Shown here: one piece after another, positions 54,659 through 64,000 of the stretch
How positions within the stretch are numbered: the stretch's first letter is position 1
How the letters are laid out: each line of letters begins with the position of its first letter
NCBI RefSeq assembly: GCF_019334305.1
Contig: NZ_JAHWGH010000001.1
Span: 1 to 64,000, forward strand
Origin: Rossellomorea orangium
Lineage (GTDB): Bacteria > Bacillota > Bacilli > Bacillales > Bacillaceae_B
DNA: 64,000 nucleotides
Direction: 5' to 3'
The notes under the pieces: model-generated
What the model saw: only the letters and a program-made list of their open reading frames with translations
What the model was told of the DNA's origin: nothing
Databases searched by the model: none
Position numbers and translations under genes: made by a program

Positions 54659-54719
54659 ATGTTCCTCCCACCTTTCATTCTTAACCCTCTGATAAAACGC
54701 TTACAAAGAGGATGAAATC

Positions 54720-54773
54720 AAAAAGACGCCATAATAGATCAACCAAGAAATGGCTCATCTATTATGGCGTCTT
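54720..54773 (-). terminator. Leader terminator of eutB2-eutC2
   Basis: A very strong minus-strand hairpin with 17-base perfect arms (AAGACGCCATAATAGAT and its complement) followed by TTTGA. It lies upstream of eutB2, so transcripts must read through it. Immediately 5' is TGGT-GAAGAC-GCCA, a possible six-loop stem with G at position 4 but G instead of A at position 1. The eutH leader has the same ATACAAGTGAA segment upstream. Confidence 0.7.
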
Positions 54774-54799
54774 CACCAACTATTTTCACTTGTATGTCC

Positions 54800-54805
54800 A
54801 TTATA
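54800..54805 (-). promoter_or_regulatory. Possible -10 box of eutB2-eutC2
   Basis: A perfect TATAAT on the minus strand about 27 bases ahead of the leader hairpin. No good -35 box is found at 16-19 bases (only a T-run), so activation or an extended element may be needed. Confidence 0.4.
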
Positions 54806-54846
54806 GCAAGTTGTTTTCTGAAAAAAAAGATATTTCGAGAAGAAAG

Positions 54847-54952
54847 GGGGACATGGGGACAGGTTCCTTGTCCCATTTTTTAAATAAAGACACGAAGACA
54901 TTACCCCTCGTCAATTTAATATTTTGGGACAGAGTACCTGTCCCCATGTCCC
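54847..54952. repeat. Inverted pair of family A repeats
   Basis: GGGGACATGGGGACAGGTTC, then CTTGTCCC (54847-54874), and GGGACAGAGTACCTGTCCCC (54925-54944) flank about 50 bases, in the gap 54659-55007 between eutB2 and the divergent regulator gene. Confidence 0.85.
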
Positions 54953-55007
54953 CGACCCCTACCTATACATATCTGTTAAAATATAAAAATACCCAGGAGG
55001 TGACCCC

Positions 55008-55901
55008 ATGGACTATTCAGTAATCGGAACTAAAATCAGAGAATTAAGGAAGGCTGTCGGAATCACGCAAGGAGACCTTGCAGAAGGAATCTGTACCCAG
55101 GCGCTGATCAGCCGAATAGAAAAGGGGGACATCTATCCAAGTGCCACCGCTTTATACCAGATCTCGGTCAAACTGGGAGTGGACGTCAACTATTTCTTTG
55201 AAATCGGGACCACGCCCCGTCTTGATTACATCATGGAAGTGGAGAAACAACTGAGGTATTTGAGAGTGTATCGAAAATATGAAGAGATGATGGATTTAGT
55301 CAGGATAGAAGAGAAGAACCCGCTCTTTTATAAAGACAATGACCATTTACAACTTCTTTATTGGCACAAAGGAATCTATCAGTTTGAGGTCAAGCGGGAT
55401 GCCGAAGCCGCCTTTGCCCTCTTCGATCAGGCATACCGACTGACCGCCAATCAGAAAAAAGCCATGTCCGAAAGAGAAATGGAAATCCTTTCAAGCAATG
55501 GAGCTATTCTTTACAATATGCAACAATATGAAGAGGCCCTTCATTACTATAAAAAAGTCATACAAGCCATGAATACAACCGGCCAACTGCAGGATAAATC
55601 AATCAAAACCAAGATATTTTACAGTACAGCCAGAGTTCTGACACGTTTAGGAGAACTTGAAGAGTCAACAGACTACTGTCTCAAAGCCATTAAATGGTGC
55701 TTTGAAGAAGAACTTCTTTGGGGACTCGGTGAGCTTCATTATCAAATCGGCTACAACTTCGAGTTGAAAAAGGAATATGCCCAGGCCCTTCCTTACTTTC
55801 GACATGCCTTGCATATGTTTGAAATACGGAAAGATGAGCCTTATGTTTCCTTTCTCGTGCCAAAGATTGAGGAAATAGCCAGGCTAATAGACCCTGCCTG
55901 A
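55008..55901 (+). CDS. XRE-TPR regulator, PlcR-like (paralogue of 23627)
   Basis: A protein of 297 residues with HTH (residues 5-60; IGTKIRELRKAVGITQGDLA) and five or six TPR-like hairpins. It shares nearly all of the HTH and most of the sensor region with the protein at 23627. It begins after AGGAGGTGA. It is divergent from eutB2, so it could regulate that unit, but nothing in the sequence proves it. Confidence 0.87.
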   Translation: MDYSVIGTKIRELRKAVGITQGDLAEGICTQALISRIEKGDIYPSATALYQISVKLGVDVNYFFEIGTTPRLDYIMEVEKQLRYLRVYRKYEEMMDLVRIEEKNPLFYKDNDHLQLLYWHKGIYQFEVKRDAEAAFALFDQAYRLTANQKKAMSEREMEILSSNGAILYNMQQYEEALHYYKKVIQAMNTTGQLQDKSIKTKIFYSTARVLTRLGELEESTDYCLKAIKWCFEEELLWGLGELHYQIGYNFELKKEYAQALPYFRHALHMFEIRKDEPYVSFLVPKIEEIARLIDPA

Positions 55902-56894: not shown

Positions 56895-57185
56895 TTTAGG
56901 GGTGGTATCCTGCAAGTTGCTTCATTACGCCTGCAGTCATTCCACGCCTTCATCATATGTTTGTATTACAACGATCATGATCCTCCTCACTTTCATGTAA
57001 TTTATGCTGGATTTATGACAAGAATAGAAATAATGACAGGTGAATATGTAAGGGGAGACGACGCTTTACCCTCAAGCAAAGAGAAGATTGTTATGAAATG
57101 GCTTCAGCTTAATAAAGGTCCCCCCAAATTTGCTGATCATTGGCATACGATTGTTCCACCTTCTTTCTTTATGTCATTAAGTTAA
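56895..57185 (+). pseudogene. DUF4160 protein, N-terminus damaged
   Basis: The MYYNDHDPPHFHV motif, the IEIMTGEYV segment and the ending of DUF4160 are all recognisable. The usual 15-residue start of the family (MPxI...I) is not in frame. The open frame begins after a stop at 56892 and gives an unrelated leader, and the first start-like codon is a TTG at 56961. A similar leader (IPRLHHMF) exists in another frame, which suggests a frameshift. The product may still be made from TTG. Confidence 0.5.
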
Positions 57186-57860
57186 AGATTCACCAATCAC
57201 TCCCGCACCATGATGTTTCTCACTTTGCGGTCTCCTATGCAGCTTGACCGCTTCCCACATATGCTGTTCCGTTACCTTTACTGAAACATCCATATCAGCG
57301 ATCGTTCTCGCAAGGCGCAAAACCTTCACCTGCATCCGGTTGCTCCAGTGCTGTTTGGATGACAGCTTATGTAGGAAAGGAAGGTGATCTTCAAGGTCCG
57401 GACTGCTCTTCAGTAACCTTTGATAATCCACTCTTCCATTACATACCTCTTCACTGTAACGGTCGTATTGCCTTTCTCTAGCCTCTTTCACGCGTCGTTG
57501 AACAGATAGAGAACCTTCTTTTTCATTTACACGATCTTTCAAATGGACGGGAGTAAGACTTAGAAAAATATCAAACCGGTCACGAATGGGCCCGGATAAT
57601 CTATTTTGATAAGCGATGATTTGCTTAGTGGTACAGGTGCAATAATGAGTGAGGGAACCAAAGTATCCGCAGGGACAAGGGTTCATGGCCCCTATCAGGA
57701 TGAAGGAGGCCGGGTAAGTAAGGGTAGAATGAGCTCTTGAGATGGTGATATCTCCTCTTTCGAGAGGTTGTCGCAACATATCCAGCGTCTTCTTTGTAAA
57801 TTCGGCGATTTCATCTAAAAAGAGGACCCCTCGGTGCGCCAAAGACGCCGTGAGGCTGAA
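57177..57860 (-). pseudogene. C-terminal half of a YifB/ComM magnesium-chelatase-like ATPase
   Basis: From about 57860 on, the frame matches the second half of YifB/ComM: SLAHRGVLFLDEIAEF (Walker B), the MNPCPCGYFG cysteine motif, LSGPIRDRFDIFL (sensor 1 and arginine region) and the C-terminal helical bundle. The first 270 residues, with the Lon-like domain and Walker A, are absent. The sequence at 57860-57890 (IFAYFYPFSLTA) is unrelated. The gene has been cut, and the junction adjoins the accessory gene group. Confidence 0.85.
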
Positions 57861-57898
57861 TGGATAAAAATACGCGAAAATATATCCCACCTATAACA

Positions 57899-57965: not shown

Positions 57966-58682
57966 TTACTCTTTGCTTTTCTTTCCTTCATAGTGAGTTT
58001 TAAAATACTTTAAAACACGATTTTTAAACTCATCTTTTTCTACACTAATTTCAGATTTAAACAGCATATAAAATTTCTCTAATAATTCATCTTTTACCTT
58101 ATCGCTAAAATCATTATATCTATAAGCAAAATCAGCAATCATCTTTCTAGGAGGATAACCCTTACTAAACTCAAATTTTATATTGTGGTCATTATACTCT
58201 TCATAAGCATACTCATAAGATCCAATAAACTTTAACTTTCTAGACAATTTAATTAACAGGTTATCCCTGTGTCTTTTTTCATTTTCGATATGTAGTTTTT
58301 TTTGGACTCTATTCATTTCTTCATCAGATAGGCCCAATACAGAAGCCCCTATCATATTTGCTCTCATTTCACTTAATAAAATGACAGCATTTTTCATTAG
58401 TTTAGATATTGACCTATCCTTAATAACGGCAATGTTATTATCTCCATATTTTGCGTGGACTAACTCATGTGCCAACATGAATTTTACAATGTTTTTGTCT
58501 TCATCCCACATTTTCAATAATACCTTACTAAGTCTGACACCTTTCCCATTAGCAAAAGCTGAACCGTTAAGTAAGTTTTCACCACTAGCTTTTAACTTGT
58601 AATCCTGTCCATTAACACCTAAATTTTTACAAATTTTATTTTTTTCTTCATTTACTTCATTTAATATTCTGTTGATCCCCAC
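57966..58682 (-). CDS. Zinc metallopeptidase-like protein (HExxH)
   Basis: A soluble protein of 238 residues. The zinc-binding motif AHELVHAKYGDN is at about residue 90, with a further acidic helix (LLSEMRANMIGASVL) at about 120 that could supply the third ligand. This resembles ImmA/IrrE or M48-type peptidases. The C-terminal half is highly charged. A GTG start at 58682 follows GAGGTG. It may be a mobile-element or defence-linked protease, by analogy. Confidence 0.7.
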   Translation of the reverse strand: MGINRILNEVNEEKNKICKNLGVNGQDYKLKASGENLLNGSAFANGKGVRLSKVLLKMWDEDKNIVKFMLAHELVHAKYGDNNIAVIKDRSISKLMKNAVILLSEMRANMIGASVLGLSDEEMNRVQKKLHIENEKRHRDNLLIKLSRKLKFIGSYEYAYEEYNDHNIKFEFSKGYPPRKMIADFAYRYNDFSDKVKDELLEKFYMLFKSEISVEKDEFKNRVLKYFKTHYEGKKSKE

Positions 58683-58728
58683 AACAAATCACCTCATAAA
58701 AAATATCACTCTATTATATACATGCAAA

Positions 58729-58757
58729 TAAAGGAGTGCCTATAGACACCCCTTTTT
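58729..58757 (-). terminator. Terminator of the 79-residue gene
   Basis: Hairpin AAGGGGTG...CACTCCTTT on the minus strand, just after the stop at 58768. Confidence 0.6.
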
Positions 58758-58767
58758 TAGTTTTATT

Positions 58768-59007
58768 TTATTCTATGAAATTGTTAATAGCTACATTTAC
58801 TTTTGTACGAATCAGACTTATGCAGCTTGCTGATACTGGTTTTTTTCTAGGATTAAGACAATCTCCTCTTAAAAACCCCTCACTGTCTCTCTTAATCACT
58901 TCATAGAAATCCCTTTGTTGCTCTGCATCATAGCCTTCAATAGTAATGAAGTATCCATTCTCACCATCTGGTGAAATTTCCTTTATTGATATAAGATGTC
59001 TTGACAT
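58768..59007 (-). CDS. Small unknown protein
   Basis: A soluble protein of 79 residues. The ATG at 59007 has AAAGGAAG upstream. There are no recognised motifs apart from a DFYEVIKRDSEGF stretch and two cysteines. It lies between the metallopeptidase and the DUF5677 gene. Confidence 0.6.
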   Translation of the reverse strand: MSRHLISIKEISPDGENGYFITIEGYDAEQQRDFYEVIKRDSEGFLRGDCLNPRKKPVSASCISLIRTKVNVAINNFIE

Positions 59008-59191
59008 AAACAACTTCCTTTCTAGTATGTTAATTTCATCTAAACCTTTTGATTTTACATTTGTCAACAAAAAATTTAAACTTATAAATTTTCTTACAAC
59101 CGCCATGTATTACCAGGGCAAATATTGCTAGATATAGTATTCATTACACTTCACGTACACATTAAGCGGGATATACTTATAGAACAAACAT

Positions 59192-60052
59192 CTATTGTTT
59201 TTTTAGAAAGTCTTTATTTACACTTCCTAACTCTTCCTTCAGGGATTTCCTCATAGCCTTTAGCATTTCTCTCATTCTTTTGTTGTAGTGTTTAAATTGA
59301 GTATCTTCTGATTTTGATTGAAAGGAAGAAATTAAAACAGGGATTAACCCATCTTGAAACTTGATAGATTCTTCAACCAACTTATAACATTCTTTTTCTG
59401 TTCTCTTGTTGAGAAAGTCCTCCCCTTCAACGGTTACAATATGTTCGAAAATCTTAGTGAATACAAAAAGTGTAAAGAAGCGAACAAGTATCGGATAATT
59501 TACCTTCTCAACTGTAAAACGAAAATGTTCGTCTAAATAATAATTTACCACTCCAAAGTTGCTATGAGCGAAAGGAGATAGGAATCCATAAAACGTGTAA
59601 TAATACTGTTTGTCTTTCCCCGTTTTAAATCCACTTGGATTTATTAGCTCTCCAACTTTTTCACCTTCCCGATTATATATTTCTCCATCTTCTCGGATAT
59701 TGTAATTGGCAAAGAACAAATTTAAAGGAAAGGTTATCAACTGGTCTATGAATTCTTCATTTTCGTTAAGGTACCTGCTGCTCAGATAACTTTCAAACAT
59801 AGTTCTTATTAATATTAGTCCATCTTCATTATGTCCCATTTTCAATAACTCTTTAATACTAATTAAGGTTTTAGTGCTCTTTGTAAAATTAAAGTACTCA
59901 TGATCATATGTAAACTTTGAGTTTGTTTCTCCTGTCATCAACATCTCATTGTATCCGTAAAGGTGTGCTGCATAATCCACGAAATCACGTGATCTAAAAA
60001 TAAATTTGTTTATTAACTTATCAAGCTTTTTCTTATATAAGTCCTTACTCAT
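59192..60052 (-). CDS. DUF5677-like protein
   Basis: An all-helical protein of 286 residues. The segment LILIRTMFESYLSSRYL is typical of DUF5677, found in many accessory regions with unknown function. The ATG at 60052 is about 7 bases after GGGGTG. A C-terminal basic coiled region follows. Confidence 0.75.
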   Translation of the reverse strand: MSKDLYKKKLDKLINKFIFRSRDFVDYAAHLYGYNEMLMTGETNSKFTYDHEYFNFTKSTKTLISIKELLKMGHNEDGLILIRTMFESYLSSRYLNENEEFIDQLITFPLNLFFANYNIREDGEIYNREGEKVGELINPSGFKTGKDKQYYYTFYGFLSPFAHSNFGVVNYYLDEHFRFTVEKVNYPILVRFFTLFVFTKIFEHIVTVEGEDFLNKRTEKECYKLVEESIKFQDGLIPVLISSFQSKSEDTQFKHYNKRMREMLKAMRKSLKEELGSVNKDFLKKQ

Positions 60053-60069
60053 CAAAGCTCACCCCTTAG

Positions 60070-60336
60070 CTACTGCCGGATGATTTTAACACCTAACTTT
60101 TTACGATCCCGGCATTGTTTCTTAAATTCTTTAGTCGCTTCTTTATTCCCCATAATAGTTAGAGTCGTAGCAAACTCATCTTTATTGATAGAACGATATA
60201 AAGCATTGATCTTTCGCTTAATATAATTTGCAAAGTAAAAGGTAAGAATGGCTCTATCACACTCAAATTCTTTATTCTTTATAAACCAGTCAACTAGCCT
60301 ATCAACGTGAATTTCATCCGGCAAGAAACGCATCAT
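60070..60336 (-). CDS. Small basic protein, unknown
   Basis: A protein of 88 residues rich in Lys and Arg at the C-terminal side (KKQCRDRKKLGVKIIRQ). It overlaps the gene at 60314 by 23 bases, and its start (ATG at 60336 or the next one) has only a weak site, so it may be translated by coupling. No family is recognised. Confidence 0.5.
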   Translation of the reverse strand: MMRFLPDEIHVDRLVDWFIKNKEFECDRAILTFYFANYIKRKINALYRSINKDEFATTLTIMGNKEATKEFKKQCRDRKKLGVKIIRQ

Positions 60337-60601
60337 CTAAATATTGAGCTGAACCAATGACTGTATCGACTGTGAGCGGGGGTCTGACCCCAATATCAAG
60401 AATTAAATTTACATGGTCTTGAATTAATTTTGAATAACCTTCCATTTTAGATACTTCGGGGATTTCTTTATTTTTTGCCCCTATTATTTTTATTAGCTGT
60501 TCTAAGGATATAAATACATCTCTTCCAGCTCCATGAACTCTTAACGTTCTTCTTAGTTCATTGTAAACTTTTCTGTTTATTCTATATGTATATTGAGTCA
60601 T
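60314..60601 (-). CDS. Small protein, unknown
   Basis: A protein of 95 residues. The ATG follows GGAGGAGAG. The N-terminus (TYRINRKVYNELRRTLRVHG) is basic and could bind nucleic acid, and the rest is helical. With the overlapping gene at 60070 it forms a two-gene unit, whose layout resembles toxin-antitoxin pairs in size only. Confidence 0.55.
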   Translation of the reverse strand: MTQYTYRINRKVYNELRRTLRVHGAGRDVFISLEQLIKIIGAKNKEIPEVSKMEGYSKLIQDHVNLILDIGVRPPLTVDTVIGSAQYLDDAFLAG

Positions 60602-60661
60602 ATTTTATTACTCTCCTCCATCTCAGTGGTCTAGTTGATTCGCCTTAAATTTTTTAAACCA

Positions 60662-60696
60662 AAATAAAAATGCCCATCAAGCTTAAATGATGGGCT
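60662..60696 (-). terminator. Terminator of the repeat-protein operon
   Basis: Perfect 8-base stem GCCCATCA/TGATGGGC and TTTTTATTTT on the minus strand, 85 bases after the stop at 60781. Confidence 0.8.
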
Positions 60697-60780
60697 GTAA
60701 AAACAAACCAAATTTTTCATTATAATAAATAATAAATTTTAAATTACTATTTTCATGTACCCTTCTCAATTACGAACCTA

Positions 60781-61101
60781 CTAGAATACCCCACCATCGC
60801 CAATTCCATTATGATCTAAATCTACAAGTTGATCATGCTGATCTGGTATTTGATCATGATCCATGTCAAAGAAAGAATCTTGTGCATCTGGTATATGATT
60901 GTGGTCCATATCCAAGAAAGGGTCCTGAGCATCAGGGATTCGATTATGGTCATAATCAGCAAACGAATCCATATGATCAGGGATATTGTTTTTATCGTAA
61001 TCAAAGAAATGGTCCTGGTTATCTGGGATCTGATTATGATCTAAGTCTAGAAACGGATCTGTCTGTTGAAATCCATTTGGTCTAAGTGGATCTTTAAACA
61101 T
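60781..61101 (-). CDS. Cytosolic protein of six calcium-binding-type 15-residue repeats
   Basis: A protein of 106 residues. After 13 residues there are six tandem units of 15 residues with pattern DxFxDxDxNxIPDxx. Aspartates at positions 1, 5, 7 and 13 and an Asn/Asp at 9 recall thrombospondin type 3 or dockerin calcium loops. There is no signal peptide. It starts 12 bases after the stop of the 810-residue gene, with AAAGGAAG as site, so the two are co-transcribed. The composition is about one third Asp. Confidence 0.75.
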   Translation of the reverse strand: MFKDPLRPNGFQQTDPFLDLDHNQIPDNQDHFFDYDKNNIPDHMDSFADYDHNRIPDAQDPFLDMDHNHIPDAQDSFFDMDHDQIPDQHDQLVDLDHNGIGDGGVF

Positions 61102-61113
61102 TTACATCTTCCT

Positions 61114-63546
61114 TTACTTTGAATTTTCAAGTGTAGGGAGTTCATTTGATATTTTTAAAATTTGTTCAAAAGCATTGATGGAAAGTTGAGATTCCTCTAT
61201 CGTTGTAAAAAGACCATTAAGTATCTCTTGCTTTGCTACTTCAGTTGTTGAATCAACCGGCAATTTTTTATAAGTGAAGATCTCAGCAATACGTTGAAGT
61301 AGCTTCTCTTTCAACAGCGGTTCTTCAAGTATTGGCTCGTATGCAAAAGCAAGTTTTTTATAGCAATCAACAATGGCATCGTTCACCTTAGAAACGTAAT
61401 AAGGCATCATAGTTTGAATATAGTGATCAAATAAGTCTAAAGCCTTTCTAAAGTAAAAATCTGTCCTGTTTTGTTCATTTTCTTCTTTTATCTCTTCTTG
61501 AAGCTTCATCATATTAGCAGAATTATTAGTGTTCAGTGCCATAAAGGTTGGTGCCAAAAGTAGGGGTGCCGCAGCTCCTCCCGTTAAAACTGTGATACCA
61601 ACACCCATCAAAGCTTGCAAACCAGCTGATTTATACCCACTCTTTCTTCTTTCATTTACCATCTCTTTTGTAGACCTCTTTGAAATTAACACTCCACATT
61701 GCATAAGATTATTTTCAATTTCTAAGAGAGATCCTTTCATCTGGTTGGTTATTCCGATTAAGTGCTTTTGAAGATCTTTAAAATATTTTTCTCCTAGATG
61801 CTTACCGTATGCCATGAACAACTCCTGTTCAACTTTATTCAGCACACCTGGCATATATACGGATATAGAATCCATCCGCTTTCTCTGAGCCTGGATGCCA
61901 TAATATAAATAGCTGACTAAACGAGACGTTCGGTCCTTCTCGCTCATATTCACCTCATAAAATTCTTCAATCCCGTCGTCCAGTACCATTAGCTGACCAA
62001 AGTACTCATATAATAATAAGTCACTTACTTCGCGAACCATTGTTCCGTAAAGAGACTTAGGATTCGTATCTACTAATACAGGAACTTTGATAAAAGTAAA
62101 CGCCTTATAAACAATCTCTTTAAATGAATTAACCGGAAGATACAGTCCCCATGAGTTCTCCACTTCATTAGAAGATAATAGACCAAAAGAGTTGCCTATC
62201 CTTTCAAGTTTCAGCTTAAGATTCATCATGTCCCTATTTCTTAAAGTATGGATAGGTTCCTCCCTATTATCTCTGTATAAAACTAAACCCTCATCATTTT
62301 GCTCATAGTAAAAAGGTTCCTTAAAGATATCAAAAAGAATTTTCTCATTCTCAAATTCTTTAACATTTATAAAGGAAATGACATGTAGTTTTGATGAATC
62401 CAATTCCAAACAGGCAAGGTTTTCATGATTCGTGACCAATAATAGATTACCGTCATTTATGAACGTAACGGTATCGACCATAATTGTTGTAATGGATAAT
62501 TTTGTGATGTGATTGATAAGATGAATGGAATTTTCTGAAATAGCCGTATCCACTTGTTCTTTCATTTCAATCCCTTCCAACAATCCCTTTATGTACCCAG
62601 TATTTTCAAAGTAATAAAATTCATTATCTTCGTGTACCTTTAGCGTAAACTGCTCCTTTACATTCTGCTTGGGCTGAATATAAAAATAATTTTCTCCTAT
62701 TTTCAAAACAGTTTCCTTAGAGTCCTTATTAAAGTATTCTTCAACATCCTTTTTTTCTTTTGTTAAAAGGACCTTCAAATGATTGCGAAGGACAATCCTG
62801 AATGAGGTATCGTCATCTAAAATATATACATCATAAGCAATATTTCTTGAGTCATTCAATTGACATTTTATAAAAGCTGCTGTGATACGTTCCTCATCAT
62901 AAGCAATATTATAAATAGTCTCTCGATCGTTCATAATCGACAAGAATTCGAGCCTTTGCCGTTCATCCGGGACAAATAAATAGATACTATCTTGATAAAC
63001 ACCCATAAATTCAAGGTTGATATTAACCCGAATAATATGATTCTCTTCTTCAGAAATGTGCGCGATCTCCGCAATATCCAAAGTCATAAACTCCAAAGGC
63101 CTGTCGCTATTAATAATTTTAAAACATATTTCATGGTCCTTTATAAGAAACTCGGCAGAATATATGTTGCTTTCGTTTAAATCAGCAAAAAGAAAACAAT
63201 GCTGATTTTGATTGGGATCTAATTCAAAATGACTTGTACCAAATTGTTCAACTACTTCAAAATAGGTTTGTAAGTCCAAAGAAAAATCAAATTTGAAGTT
63301 CATTGTTTTCCCAACTAGATGTACCTTCTCATCTTCCAATTTCACACATATTTTTTTTGTTCTAGGAAAATAGTAAACTTTTTCCTCACTAAAGAATCCA
63401 CCTGTGTCATGCGCAATAATTCTACCCTGATTGGTCATGACAAGCGAATATACCCCAAAAGAAGATCCATTTTCAATCATAACCTCTGGAGCTTTCCCTT
63501 CAAATATCACGTATTCTCCATAATACAAATATTCTTCTATTCCCAT
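61114..63546 (-). CDS. Large unknown protein with PH-like start and hydrophobic hairpin
   Basis: A protein of 810 residues with no signal peptide. The N-terminal 100 residues have a beta-rich bacterial PH-like pattern (YGEYVIFEGKAPEVMI...LVMTNQGRIIAHDTGG), and further similar strand-rich blocks continue to about 480. From about 520 it becomes helical. A glycine/alanine-rich hydrophobic stretch (LMGVGITVLTGGAAAPLLLAP, about 645-670) could enter a membrane, and it is flanked by coiled segments rich in Glu and Lys. No family is recognised. It is first in the operon with the repeat protein. The ATG follows AAGGGTGAT. Confidence 0.75.
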   Translation of the reverse strand: MGIEEYLYYGEYVIFEGKAPEVMIENGSSFGVYSLVMTNQGRIIAHDTGGFFSEEKVYYFPRTKKICVKLEDEKVHLVGKTMNFKFDFSLDLQTYFEVVEQFGTSHFELDPNQNQHCFLFADLNESNIYSAEFLIKDHEICFKIINSDRPLEFMTLDIAEIAHISEEENHIIRVNINLEFMGVYQDSIYLFVPDERQRLEFLSIMNDRETIYNIAYDEERITAAFIKCQLNDSRNIAYDVYILDDDTSFRIVLRNHLKVLLTKEKKDVEEYFNKDSKETVLKIGENYFYIQPKQNVKEQFTLKVHEDNEFYYFENTGYIKGLLEGIEMKEQVDTAISENSIHLINHITKLSITTIMVDTVTFINDGNLLLVTNHENLACLELDSSKLHVISFINVKEFENEKILFDIFKEPFYYEQNDEGLVLYRDNREEPIHTLRNRDMMNLKLKLERIGNSFGLLSSNEVENSWGLYLPVNSFKEIVYKAFTFIKVPVLVDTNPKSLYGTMVREVSDLLLYEYFGQLMVLDDGIEEFYEVNMSEKDRTSRLVSYLYYGIQAQRKRMDSISVYMPGVLNKVEQELFMAYGKHLGEKYFKDLQKHLIGITNQMKGSLLEIENNLMQCGVLISKRSTKEMVNERRKSGYKSAGLQALMGVGITVLTGGAAAPLLLAPTFMALNTNNSANMMKLQEEIKEENEQNRTDFYFRKALDLFDHYIQTMMPYYVSKVNDAIVDCYKKLAFAYEPILEEPLLKEKLLQRIAEIFTYKKLPVDSTTEVAKQEILNGLFTTIEESQLSINAFEQILKISNELPTLENSK

Positions 63547-63599
63547 CTGGCTATCACCCTTATGTGAAATTATTCATCGACAATATAATACCATATTAT

Positions 63600-64000
63600 T
63601 CCACACTACGGTTCTTTTGATGTAGAAAAAATTCAATGTATACCAGGGATATTTTCAACCAAATCCCTTAATCTCATTTTATAAGTACATGGATAGAATA
63701 ATTTTGATCAACGAGAACTGCGTAGCAAGCTATGTTATCAATCAGTTGCCGGTAACACATTTTTCCATCAATAATCTAAATTCTATTGTTCCAATCAATA
63801 TAAGACAACTATCTCATGTTACACATTAAGTAACTCTATTTCTCTCAATTACCGTCTCAACTGTCCACAACAAATGGCTCTTAAGAGAGGTACTACTCAT
63901 GCGGACTTTTCTTTGGTGTAGGTTGGCCATTTTAAATATTTAAGTTTGCCGAAATCATTTTTCTCTAGTTAGAGAGTACATTGAAAAAAGATAAATGCAA
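63600..64000. other. Non-coding end of window
   Basis: No open frame of credible size and no repeat recognised above. It may include the promoter of the 810-residue gene (an AT-rich TATTATATTG near 63580-63590 on the minus strand) and the distal edge of the accessory region. Confidence 0.5.

What the first reader, a model, noticed from the sequence alone, without database searches (positions are those of the whole stretch)
60781..63546. Two-gene unit: PH-like/hydrophobic 810-aa protein plus cytosolic calcium-repeat protein
The two genes are 12 bases apart and share one terminator. The small protein is almost only DxDxNxIPD repeats, a pattern normally seen in secreted proteins, yet it lacks a signal peptide. 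The large protein has PH-like strands and a membrane-insertable Gly/Ala hairpin. This combination suggests a calcium-responsive membrane-acting system, possibly defence or stress related. I know of no described system of this shape.
Basis: partly seen in the sequence, partly recalled or inferred. Interest (0 to 1): 0.75.

Follow-up and report, generated by a model that had tools for sequence, protein, structure and literature searches.

The report
Paired membrane-acting and acidic-adaptor genes
Two adjacent bacterial genes, one for a large protein with PH-like domains and a greasy helical hairpin and one for a small acidic partner, form a rare pair that recurs in distantly related bacteria and shares partner types with some bacterial dynamin gene clusters, so it may be an undescribed membrane-acting system.

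Summary
In detail: both genes are at the stated coordinates, 12 bases apart, with a terminator-like hairpin after the second. Only weak, sub-cut-off matches to known families or solved sequences. The pair is rare but conserved. I found ten clear relatives of the 810-aa protein (nine measured: 18-24% identical). Eight have a small partner gene directly downstream; two, in another class, have a C39-like protein directly upstream. Predicted structure supports PH-like domains followed by a helical bundle with a hydrophobic hairpin, at modest confidence. The calcium-type repeats are NOT the conserved part of the small protein: four of nine lack them. All nine share an N-terminal double motif, [ND]P[FL]...DPF. 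In five plasmid loci opened, relatives of the C39 partner lie near dynamin-family or GTPase genes and DxDxDG-type repeats. Best reading: a GTPase-free, cytosolic, membrane-acting protein held or recruited by a small adaptor, analogous to dynamin modules but not a member. Defence role and calcium response are untested. The pair lies in a low-GC stretch absent from the comM locus of a close relative.

The parts
61114..63546 (-). Large protein P0002, 810 aa: about 490 residues of mostly beta structure with PH-like domains, then a helical bundle with a hydrophobic hairpin
62089..62349 (-). Best-supported PH-like domain (P0002 residues 400-486)
61117..62163 (-). Helical C-terminal region (residues 462-810); holds most of the invariant columns of the family alignment
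61555..61611 (-). Hydrophobic Gly/Ala segment (residues 646-664), the putative membrane-inserting tip; Gly648 is near-invariant
60781..61101 (-). Small partner P0001, 106 aa
61051..61092 (-). Conserved N-terminal double motif DPL...DPF (residues 4-17) of P0001
60784..61050 (-). Variable tail of P0001 with six DxDxNxIPD-type repeats
60672..60695 (-). Terminator-like hairpin after the two-gene unit
58000..64000 (.). Part of a low-GC stretch (0.30-0.37 per kb) that runs on to about contig position 68000, before a transposase gene and an intact comM

Best explanation
A rare, patchily distributed two-gene cassette. SHOWN: the genes are adjacent and the pairing is conserved over wide divergence; the small partner carries an N-terminal [ND]P[FL]...DPF double motif in 9 of 9; its tail varies. 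SUPPORTED BY MODELS: the large protein, which has no signal peptide, has PH-like domains and ends in a helical bundle with a hydrophobic hairpin. INFERRED: the PH-like domains bind the inner face of the membrane or the small partner; the small protein docks on the large one through its [ND]P[FL] motifs and acts as an adaptor or inhibitor that keeps the large protein soluble or places it; when membrane state or cation level changes, the large protein is released, assembles, and inserts its hairpin to bend, seal or breach the membrane. It would then do the job of a dynamin-like module without a GTPase. Which outcome (repair, remodelling, or self-killing on phage attack) cannot be told from sequence.
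For: Pair conservation: of 10 clear relatives of P0002, 8 have the small partner directly downstream and 2 have a C39-like protein directly upstream, 13 and 12 bases away. [ND]P[FL] motifs: 24 in eight distinct small proteins against 1.74 expected, maximum 8 in 5000 shuffles (the eight are related, so they are not independent); 0 or 1 in each of ten large proteins. Over 28 residues that cover the motif, P0001 is 18 and 17 of 28 identical to the partners from G175 and G263, whose large proteins are 20% and 18% identical to P0002. PH-like fold. Hydrophobic hairpin: the most hydrophobic 19-mer of the whole protein lies there in 8 of 10 members tested. Shared partner types: the C39-like partner P0003 is 46% identical over 182 residues to an Anabaena C39 protein that itself carries DTDGDGQPD and DLDGDGIPD repeats and is followed, after one gene, by two dynamin-family genes; in 4 of 4 Rhodococcus plasmid loci opened there are C39, a neighbouring protein with 11-13 DxDx[DN] matches, and a gene annotated dynamin family (3) or GTPase (1) within about 7 kb. 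An acidic tail that blocks a PH domain in cis is known for Phafin2 (PMC9324892, abstract in the search listing).
Against: No sequence relation between the P0002 family and the dynamins of those loci (hhalign probability 0.2, E 0.32, 41 columns). The full model has mean pLDDT 53.4 and the helical model 67.5; the hairpin itself is under 50. In 2 of 10 relatives (G263, G1092) the hairpin is not the most hydrophobic stretch. Tails without calcium-type repeats in 4 of 9 small partners speak against calcium as the general signal. I saw no constant third gene near the pair (by eye). The C39-P0002 link rests on two genomes of one genus, the C39-dynamin link on 5 of 27 plasmid records, picked by me.
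Confidence: 0.4

Rival explanations
1. Pore-forming effector with its inhibitor: the helical C-terminus works like alpha-pore-forming toxins (ClyA/Hbl type), the PH-like part senses or targets, and the small protein is the antidote; the pair causes abortive infection or kills rivals.
Confidence: 0.25
2. BAR-PH-like membrane-shaping or tethering protein that serves under envelope stress or sporulation, the small protein being a calcium- or partner-binding adaptor.
Against: Very patchy: 1 of 36 genomes of its own genus, 1 of 26 of the genus of G763, 1 of 15 of the order of G545, unlike a housekeeping gene. BAR domains lack a hydrophobic hairpin (recalled).
Confidence: 0.2
3. The pair is cargo of a mobile element or a secreted protein with its chaperone (type VII-like), with no role at the producer's own membrane.
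For: Low-GC stretch near a transposase gene; rarity; small gene directly downstream; no signal peptide on either.
Against: I recognised no integrase or secretion gene beside the relatives' pairs in the ORF lists (read by eye, no family search was run on those neighbours), and P0002 has no match in 50,697 phage or 72,556 plasmid records; a motif-based scan of viral contigs gave none.
Confidence: 0.1

Closest known systems
Bacterial dynamin-like protein modules (DynA, BDLP, IniA/IniC)
   Same: Large protein without signal peptide, long helices and a Gly/Ala hydrophobic hairpin; partner proteins of the same types (C39-like, DxDxDG-type repeats) occur near dynamin-family or GTPase genes on one Anabaena and four Rhodococcus plasmids; DynA gives phage resistance in B. 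subtilis (PMC8844932, abstract in the listing)
   Different: No GTPase domain; PH-like domains instead; no detectable sequence homology
Alpha-pore-forming toxins of the ClyA/Hbl/Xax type
   Same: Helical bundle with a hydrophobic hairpin; weak fold similarity
   Different: No signal peptide, much larger, PH-like N-terminal part, small acidic partner; the similarity is not significant
PH-domain proteins (FACT subunits Pob3/SSRP1, BBS5, FARP1; bacterial CheF)
   Same: Predicted beta domains superpose on their domains; that Pob3, SSRP1, BBS5 and CheF domains are PH-like is recalled
   Different: No sequence match; the helical C-terminus and small partner are not part of those proteins (recalled)
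Thrombospondin type-3 / EF-hand-like DxDxDG repeat proteins
   Same: Aspartate spacing of the repeats in P0001
   Different: Loop glycine in only 1 of 6 repeats; no signal peptide; no such Pfam match, though Pfam also misses the plain DxDxDG repeats of two Rhodococcus proteins

Membership tests
Dynamin superfamily | Dynamin-type GTPase domain | tested here: not met
   No Dynamin_N match in P0002 at E <= 1; the same library finds it in 4 of 4 GTPase proteins tested from the Anabaena and Rhodococcus loci
Dynamin superfamily | Helical stalk with membrane-inserting paddle | tested here: inconclusive
PH-like domain proteins | PH-type barrel closed by a C-terminal helix | tested here: met
PH-like domain proteins | Lipid or peptide binding | not testable with these tools
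   -
ClyA-type alpha-pore-forming toxins | ClyA-type fold | tested here: inconclusive
ClyA-type alpha-pore-forming toxins | Pore formation | not testable with these tools
   -
EF-hand / thrombospondin type-3 repeat proteins | Match to a curated repeat family | tested here: inconclusive
   No such Pfam match for P0001 at E <= 1, but two proteins with 11-13 plain DxDxDG-type repeats also get no Pfam match, so the test cannot tell
EF-hand / thrombospondin type-3 repeat proteins | Calcium binding | not testable with these tools
   Loop position 6 is Q, N, R, H, Q, G in the six repeats, so binding is doubtful
Known anti-phage defence systems | Match to a PADLOC model | tested here: not met
   0 families for P0001 and P0002 at E <= 1

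The most novel reading that the evidence does not exclude
A GTPase-free counterpart of bacterial dynamin modules: PH-like domains plus a helical stalk with a membrane-inserting tip, driven not by GTP but by release of an acidic [ND]P[FL]-motif adaptor, and drawing on the same pool of partner proteins (signal-less calcium-type repeats, C39-like proteases) as dynamin loci of Cyanobacteria and Actinomycetota. It would be a bacterial membrane-surveillance or abortive-infection device whose cytosolic calcium-type repeats sense cation influx through a damaged membrane.
Probability: 0.2. Interest if true: 0.85.

Novelty: categorically new. Interest (0 to 1): 0.62.

Why it matters
Proteins that combine PH domains, a membrane-bending helical part and adaptors with repeated Asn/Asp-Pro-Phe motifs are, as far as I recall, described from eukaryotic membrane traffic, not from bacteria. 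A bacterial pair of this shape that shares partner types with dynamin loci would show a second way to build a regulated membrane-acting machine, and it makes a concrete question testable: do cytosolic DxDxDG-type repeat proteins sense calcium entering a damaged bacterial cell? Even if the function is humbler, it names an unannotated protein family and its partner in at least two classes of Bacillota.

Tried and rejected
Calcium sensing as the defining function: weakened, since 4 of 9 small partners have another tail (GY.RADG..VDGYWRDGDG.T.HDL..GGGY.QTNPDG type). P0002 as a diverged dynamin: no GTPase match and no profile similarity to dynamins of the C39 loci. Phage or plasmid origin: no match of P0002 in phage or plasmid records, none of two relatives in plasmids, none in a motif-based scan of viral contigs. 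Widespread housekeeping gene: rejected by 1 of 36 and 1 of 26 genomes, 1 of 15, and 8 of 397 in the order, namely itself, 4 clear and 3 weak. Low-GC stretch made by duplication of comM: the partial comM at 57177-57890 is 56% identical to the intact copy, so it is a foreign or old remnant. Low GC alone is not decisive: parts of 71-75 kb of the same contig are as low or lower. Full-model Foldseek rows (COPI, FACT, WD40; E down to 3e-7 but TM about 0.1) were taken as artefacts of a low-confidence beta-rich model, and the PH reading rests. A first scan of named genomes with P0002 alone found no relative (20 stretches); the second, with A2, confirmed 3 of 75 stretches; such scans need short conserved words and cannot show absence. 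A search for P0003 in 299 Bacillota genomes found nothing, but the genome that holds it was not shown to be in the draw, so this is no evidence of absence. A tree of the 11 large proteins leaves the window protein on a long branch (2.25) with no supported neighbour, so I cannot say which partner type is older. Literature: the searches listed no paper whose title or abstract start describes this pair or the C39-dynamin link; only an open-access library was searched and one paper was looked into (PMC7016017, passages; it treats EF-hands and dynamin-family EHD GTPases, not this pair). BAR, sorting-nexin, receptor and designed-bundle rows do not discriminate.

Rows dropped before counts: weak matches L009, L010, L011 (E 2e-4 to 9e-4), L004 (own genome, E 0.05) and L041 (G1090, E 2.7e-4, two stops); their neighbourhoods were not read. 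L016 was left out of the summed motif count because it nearly repeats L015. G1225 is not in the alignments and hydropathy counts. Of 27 plasmid records with a C39 relative, 5 were opened; they were chosen by me, the 12 Prescottella records were not opened, and the four Rhodococcus plasmids may be related, so these are few independent cases. In one of the five the neighbour is annotated GTPase, not dynamin. No control for chance nearness to a dynamin gene was run. Names given to neighbours of the relatives' pairs are my reading of the ORF lists.

Full report
CHECK. The two genes are as described: 61114-63546 (-), 810 aa, and 60781-61101 (-), 106 aa, 12 bases apart, with a ribosome-binding-site-like AGGAAG in the gap and a terminator-like hairpin after the second. 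The small protein has 26 Asp in 106 residues and 6 matches to D.[DN].[ND].[ILV].D; shuffled copies have 0.07 on average and never more than 2. Neither protein has a hydrophobic N-terminus. At E <= 1 only weak, sub-cut-off and mutually unrelated matches appear in Pfam, NCBIfam and PHROGs, none in PADLOC, and only weak ones among solved sequences (best E 0.018, for P0001).

DISTRIBUTION. P0002 has a match in 1 of 36 genomes of its genus (the only genus of its family in the set), namely itself. In all: 10 clear relatives, aligning with P0002 over most of the length or over the C-terminal half. The genus of G763 has 1 of 26 and the order of G545 1 of 15, in each case the known one. The draws overlap, so the numbers of genomes must not be added. 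There was no match in phage or plasmid records and none in a motif-based scan of viral contigs.

THE PAIR IS CONSERVED. In 8 of 10 relatives a 95-115 aa gene lies directly downstream on the same strand: gaps of 2, 2 and 11 bases, or overlaps of 4, 41, 44, 44 and 44 bases. In the other two (G1092, G1225) no such gene of 60 aa or more follows; instead a C39-like protein (ORFs of 333 and 380 codons) lies directly upstream, 13 or 12 bases away. P0003, the one from G1092, is below Pfam's cut-off for C39_2 by itself (19.7 against 24 bits, E 0.0014), but its Anabaena relative is above it. I saw nothing else constant: by eye the neighbours range from flagellar to sugar-metabolism and transport genes.

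WHAT IS CONSERVED IN THE SMALL PROTEIN. Not the calcium-type repeats. They are clear in the window protein and in two relatives (G175, G263), reduced to two copies in G150 and G040, and absent in four (Brevibacillus, Ammoniphilus, G637, Bacillus B1-b2), whose tails share a different motif. All nine share an N-terminal [ND]P[FL] followed 7-11 residues later by DPF; the spacing is exactly 11 in six of nine. Counting all [ND]P[FL] motifs gives 24 in eight distinct small proteins against 1.74 expected, and 0 or 1 in each of ten large proteins; the eight are related, so the excess shows conservation rather than independent origin. Over 28 residues covering this region the window protein is 18 and 17 of 28 identical to the partners in G175 and G263, while the large proteins are 20% and 18% identical to P0002. 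That is what a docking motif would look like; docking itself is inferred.

A LINK TO DYNAMIN LOCI. The C39-like partner of G1092 has relatives on 27 plasmid records. I opened five loci. In the Anabaena plasmid the C39 protein (46% identical over 182 residues) itself carries DTDGDGQPDN and DLDGDGIPDE repeats, and two dynamin-family genes follow after one intervening gene. In the four Rhodococcus plasmids the C39 gene follows a gene for a protein with 11-13 DxDx[DN] matches and, by eye, no signal peptide, and a gene annotated dynamin family (three) or GTPase (one) lies within about 7 kb, in two with an Hsp70. Pfam confirms Dynamin_N in the four GTPase proteins tested (two of L043, one each of L044 and L048), and C39-like peptidase in the two C39 proteins tested; a profile of three of the dynamins matches IniA best among solved structures (E 3e-32). 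So the two partner types of the P0002 family, calcium-type repeat proteins and C39-like proteins, also occur together near dynamins. P0002 itself is not a dynamin: no GTPase, no profile similarity (hhalign probability 0.2). The link is by company, not by descent; it rests on few, partly related loci and has no chance control.

SETTING. The unit lies in a stretch of GC 0.30-0.37 per kb from about 58 kb to 68 kb, against 0.42 for the window, between a partial comM (57177-57890) and, on the same contig, a Y1-type transposase gene (68484-69284) and an intact comM (69299-70891). In G009, the same-genus genome with the best comM match, comM and the transposase are kept but blastn finds nothing of the stretch between; there an AbiLi-like gene lies next to them (PADLOC E 7e-28). 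So this is a variable spot that holds a defence gene in one relative. This is mild support for a defence role, no more.

EXPLANATION. Shown: pair, conservation, motif, variable spot. Modelled: PH-like domains, helical bundle, hairpin. Inferred: docking of the small protein through its motifs, control of membrane binding by its acidic or calcium-type tail (a cis example is the poly-Asp tail of Phafin2, PMC9324892, abstract seen in the listing), hairpin insertion on release, and a result at the membrane akin to that of dynamin-like proteins, one of which, DynA, gives phage resistance in B. subtilis (PMC8844932, start of abstract seen in the listing). Rivals are a pore-forming effector with inhibitor, a BAR-PH-like shaping protein, and mobile cargo.

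NOVELTY. No library or paper search that I ran names this pair. I rate it categorically new in kind but uncertain in function. It is a rare accessory gene pair, and it could turn out to be a modest variant of a known membrane-acting scheme.

Noticed in passing
window 57177-57890 and contig G000:C12 69299-70891: A partial comM (C-terminal 237 aa) and an intact comM, 56% identical, lie on either side of the low-GC stretch; two other genomes of the genus (G019, G021) also have two comM-like matches, one with stops.
   Followed up: partly
L037 14622-16746: In a close relative (G009) the place next to comM holds an AbiLi/AriA-like ATPase gene followed by a second gene without a PADLOC match, so the spot may take defence genes.
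   Followed up: partly
L044, L048, L049, L050, L043: Plasmid loci of Rhodococcus and Anabaena combine dynamin-like GTPases, a C39-like peptidase and DxDxDG-type repeats (in Rhodococcus a separate protein, twice with an Hsp70); my searches listed no paper on this set.
   Followed up: partly
L019 9005-9352, L020 9073-9399, L021 7306-7644, L025 8405-8737: The alternative tail of the small partner (GY.RADG..VDGYWRDGDG.T.HDL..GGGY.QTNPDG..NN.G) is alike in four relatives; three of the four were scanned and have no Pfam match over cut-off.
   Followed up: no
window 57966-60601: Downstream on the same strand: an M48-type peptidase gene (57966-58682), a DUF5677 protein (59192-60055) and three small proteins without a family match over cut-off.
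   Followed up: partly
window 54712-55901: An RNPP-type HTH-TPR regulator (55008-55901) whose start overlaps the end of a 103-aa ORF; possibly a quorum-sensing type regulator.
   Followed up: no
contig G000:C12 64430-67023: Divergently oriented beside the pair: a protein with SH3 repeats and an M23 peptidase domain (64430-66103); further on a uracil-DNA-glycosylase-like gene (66259-67023).
   Followed up: no
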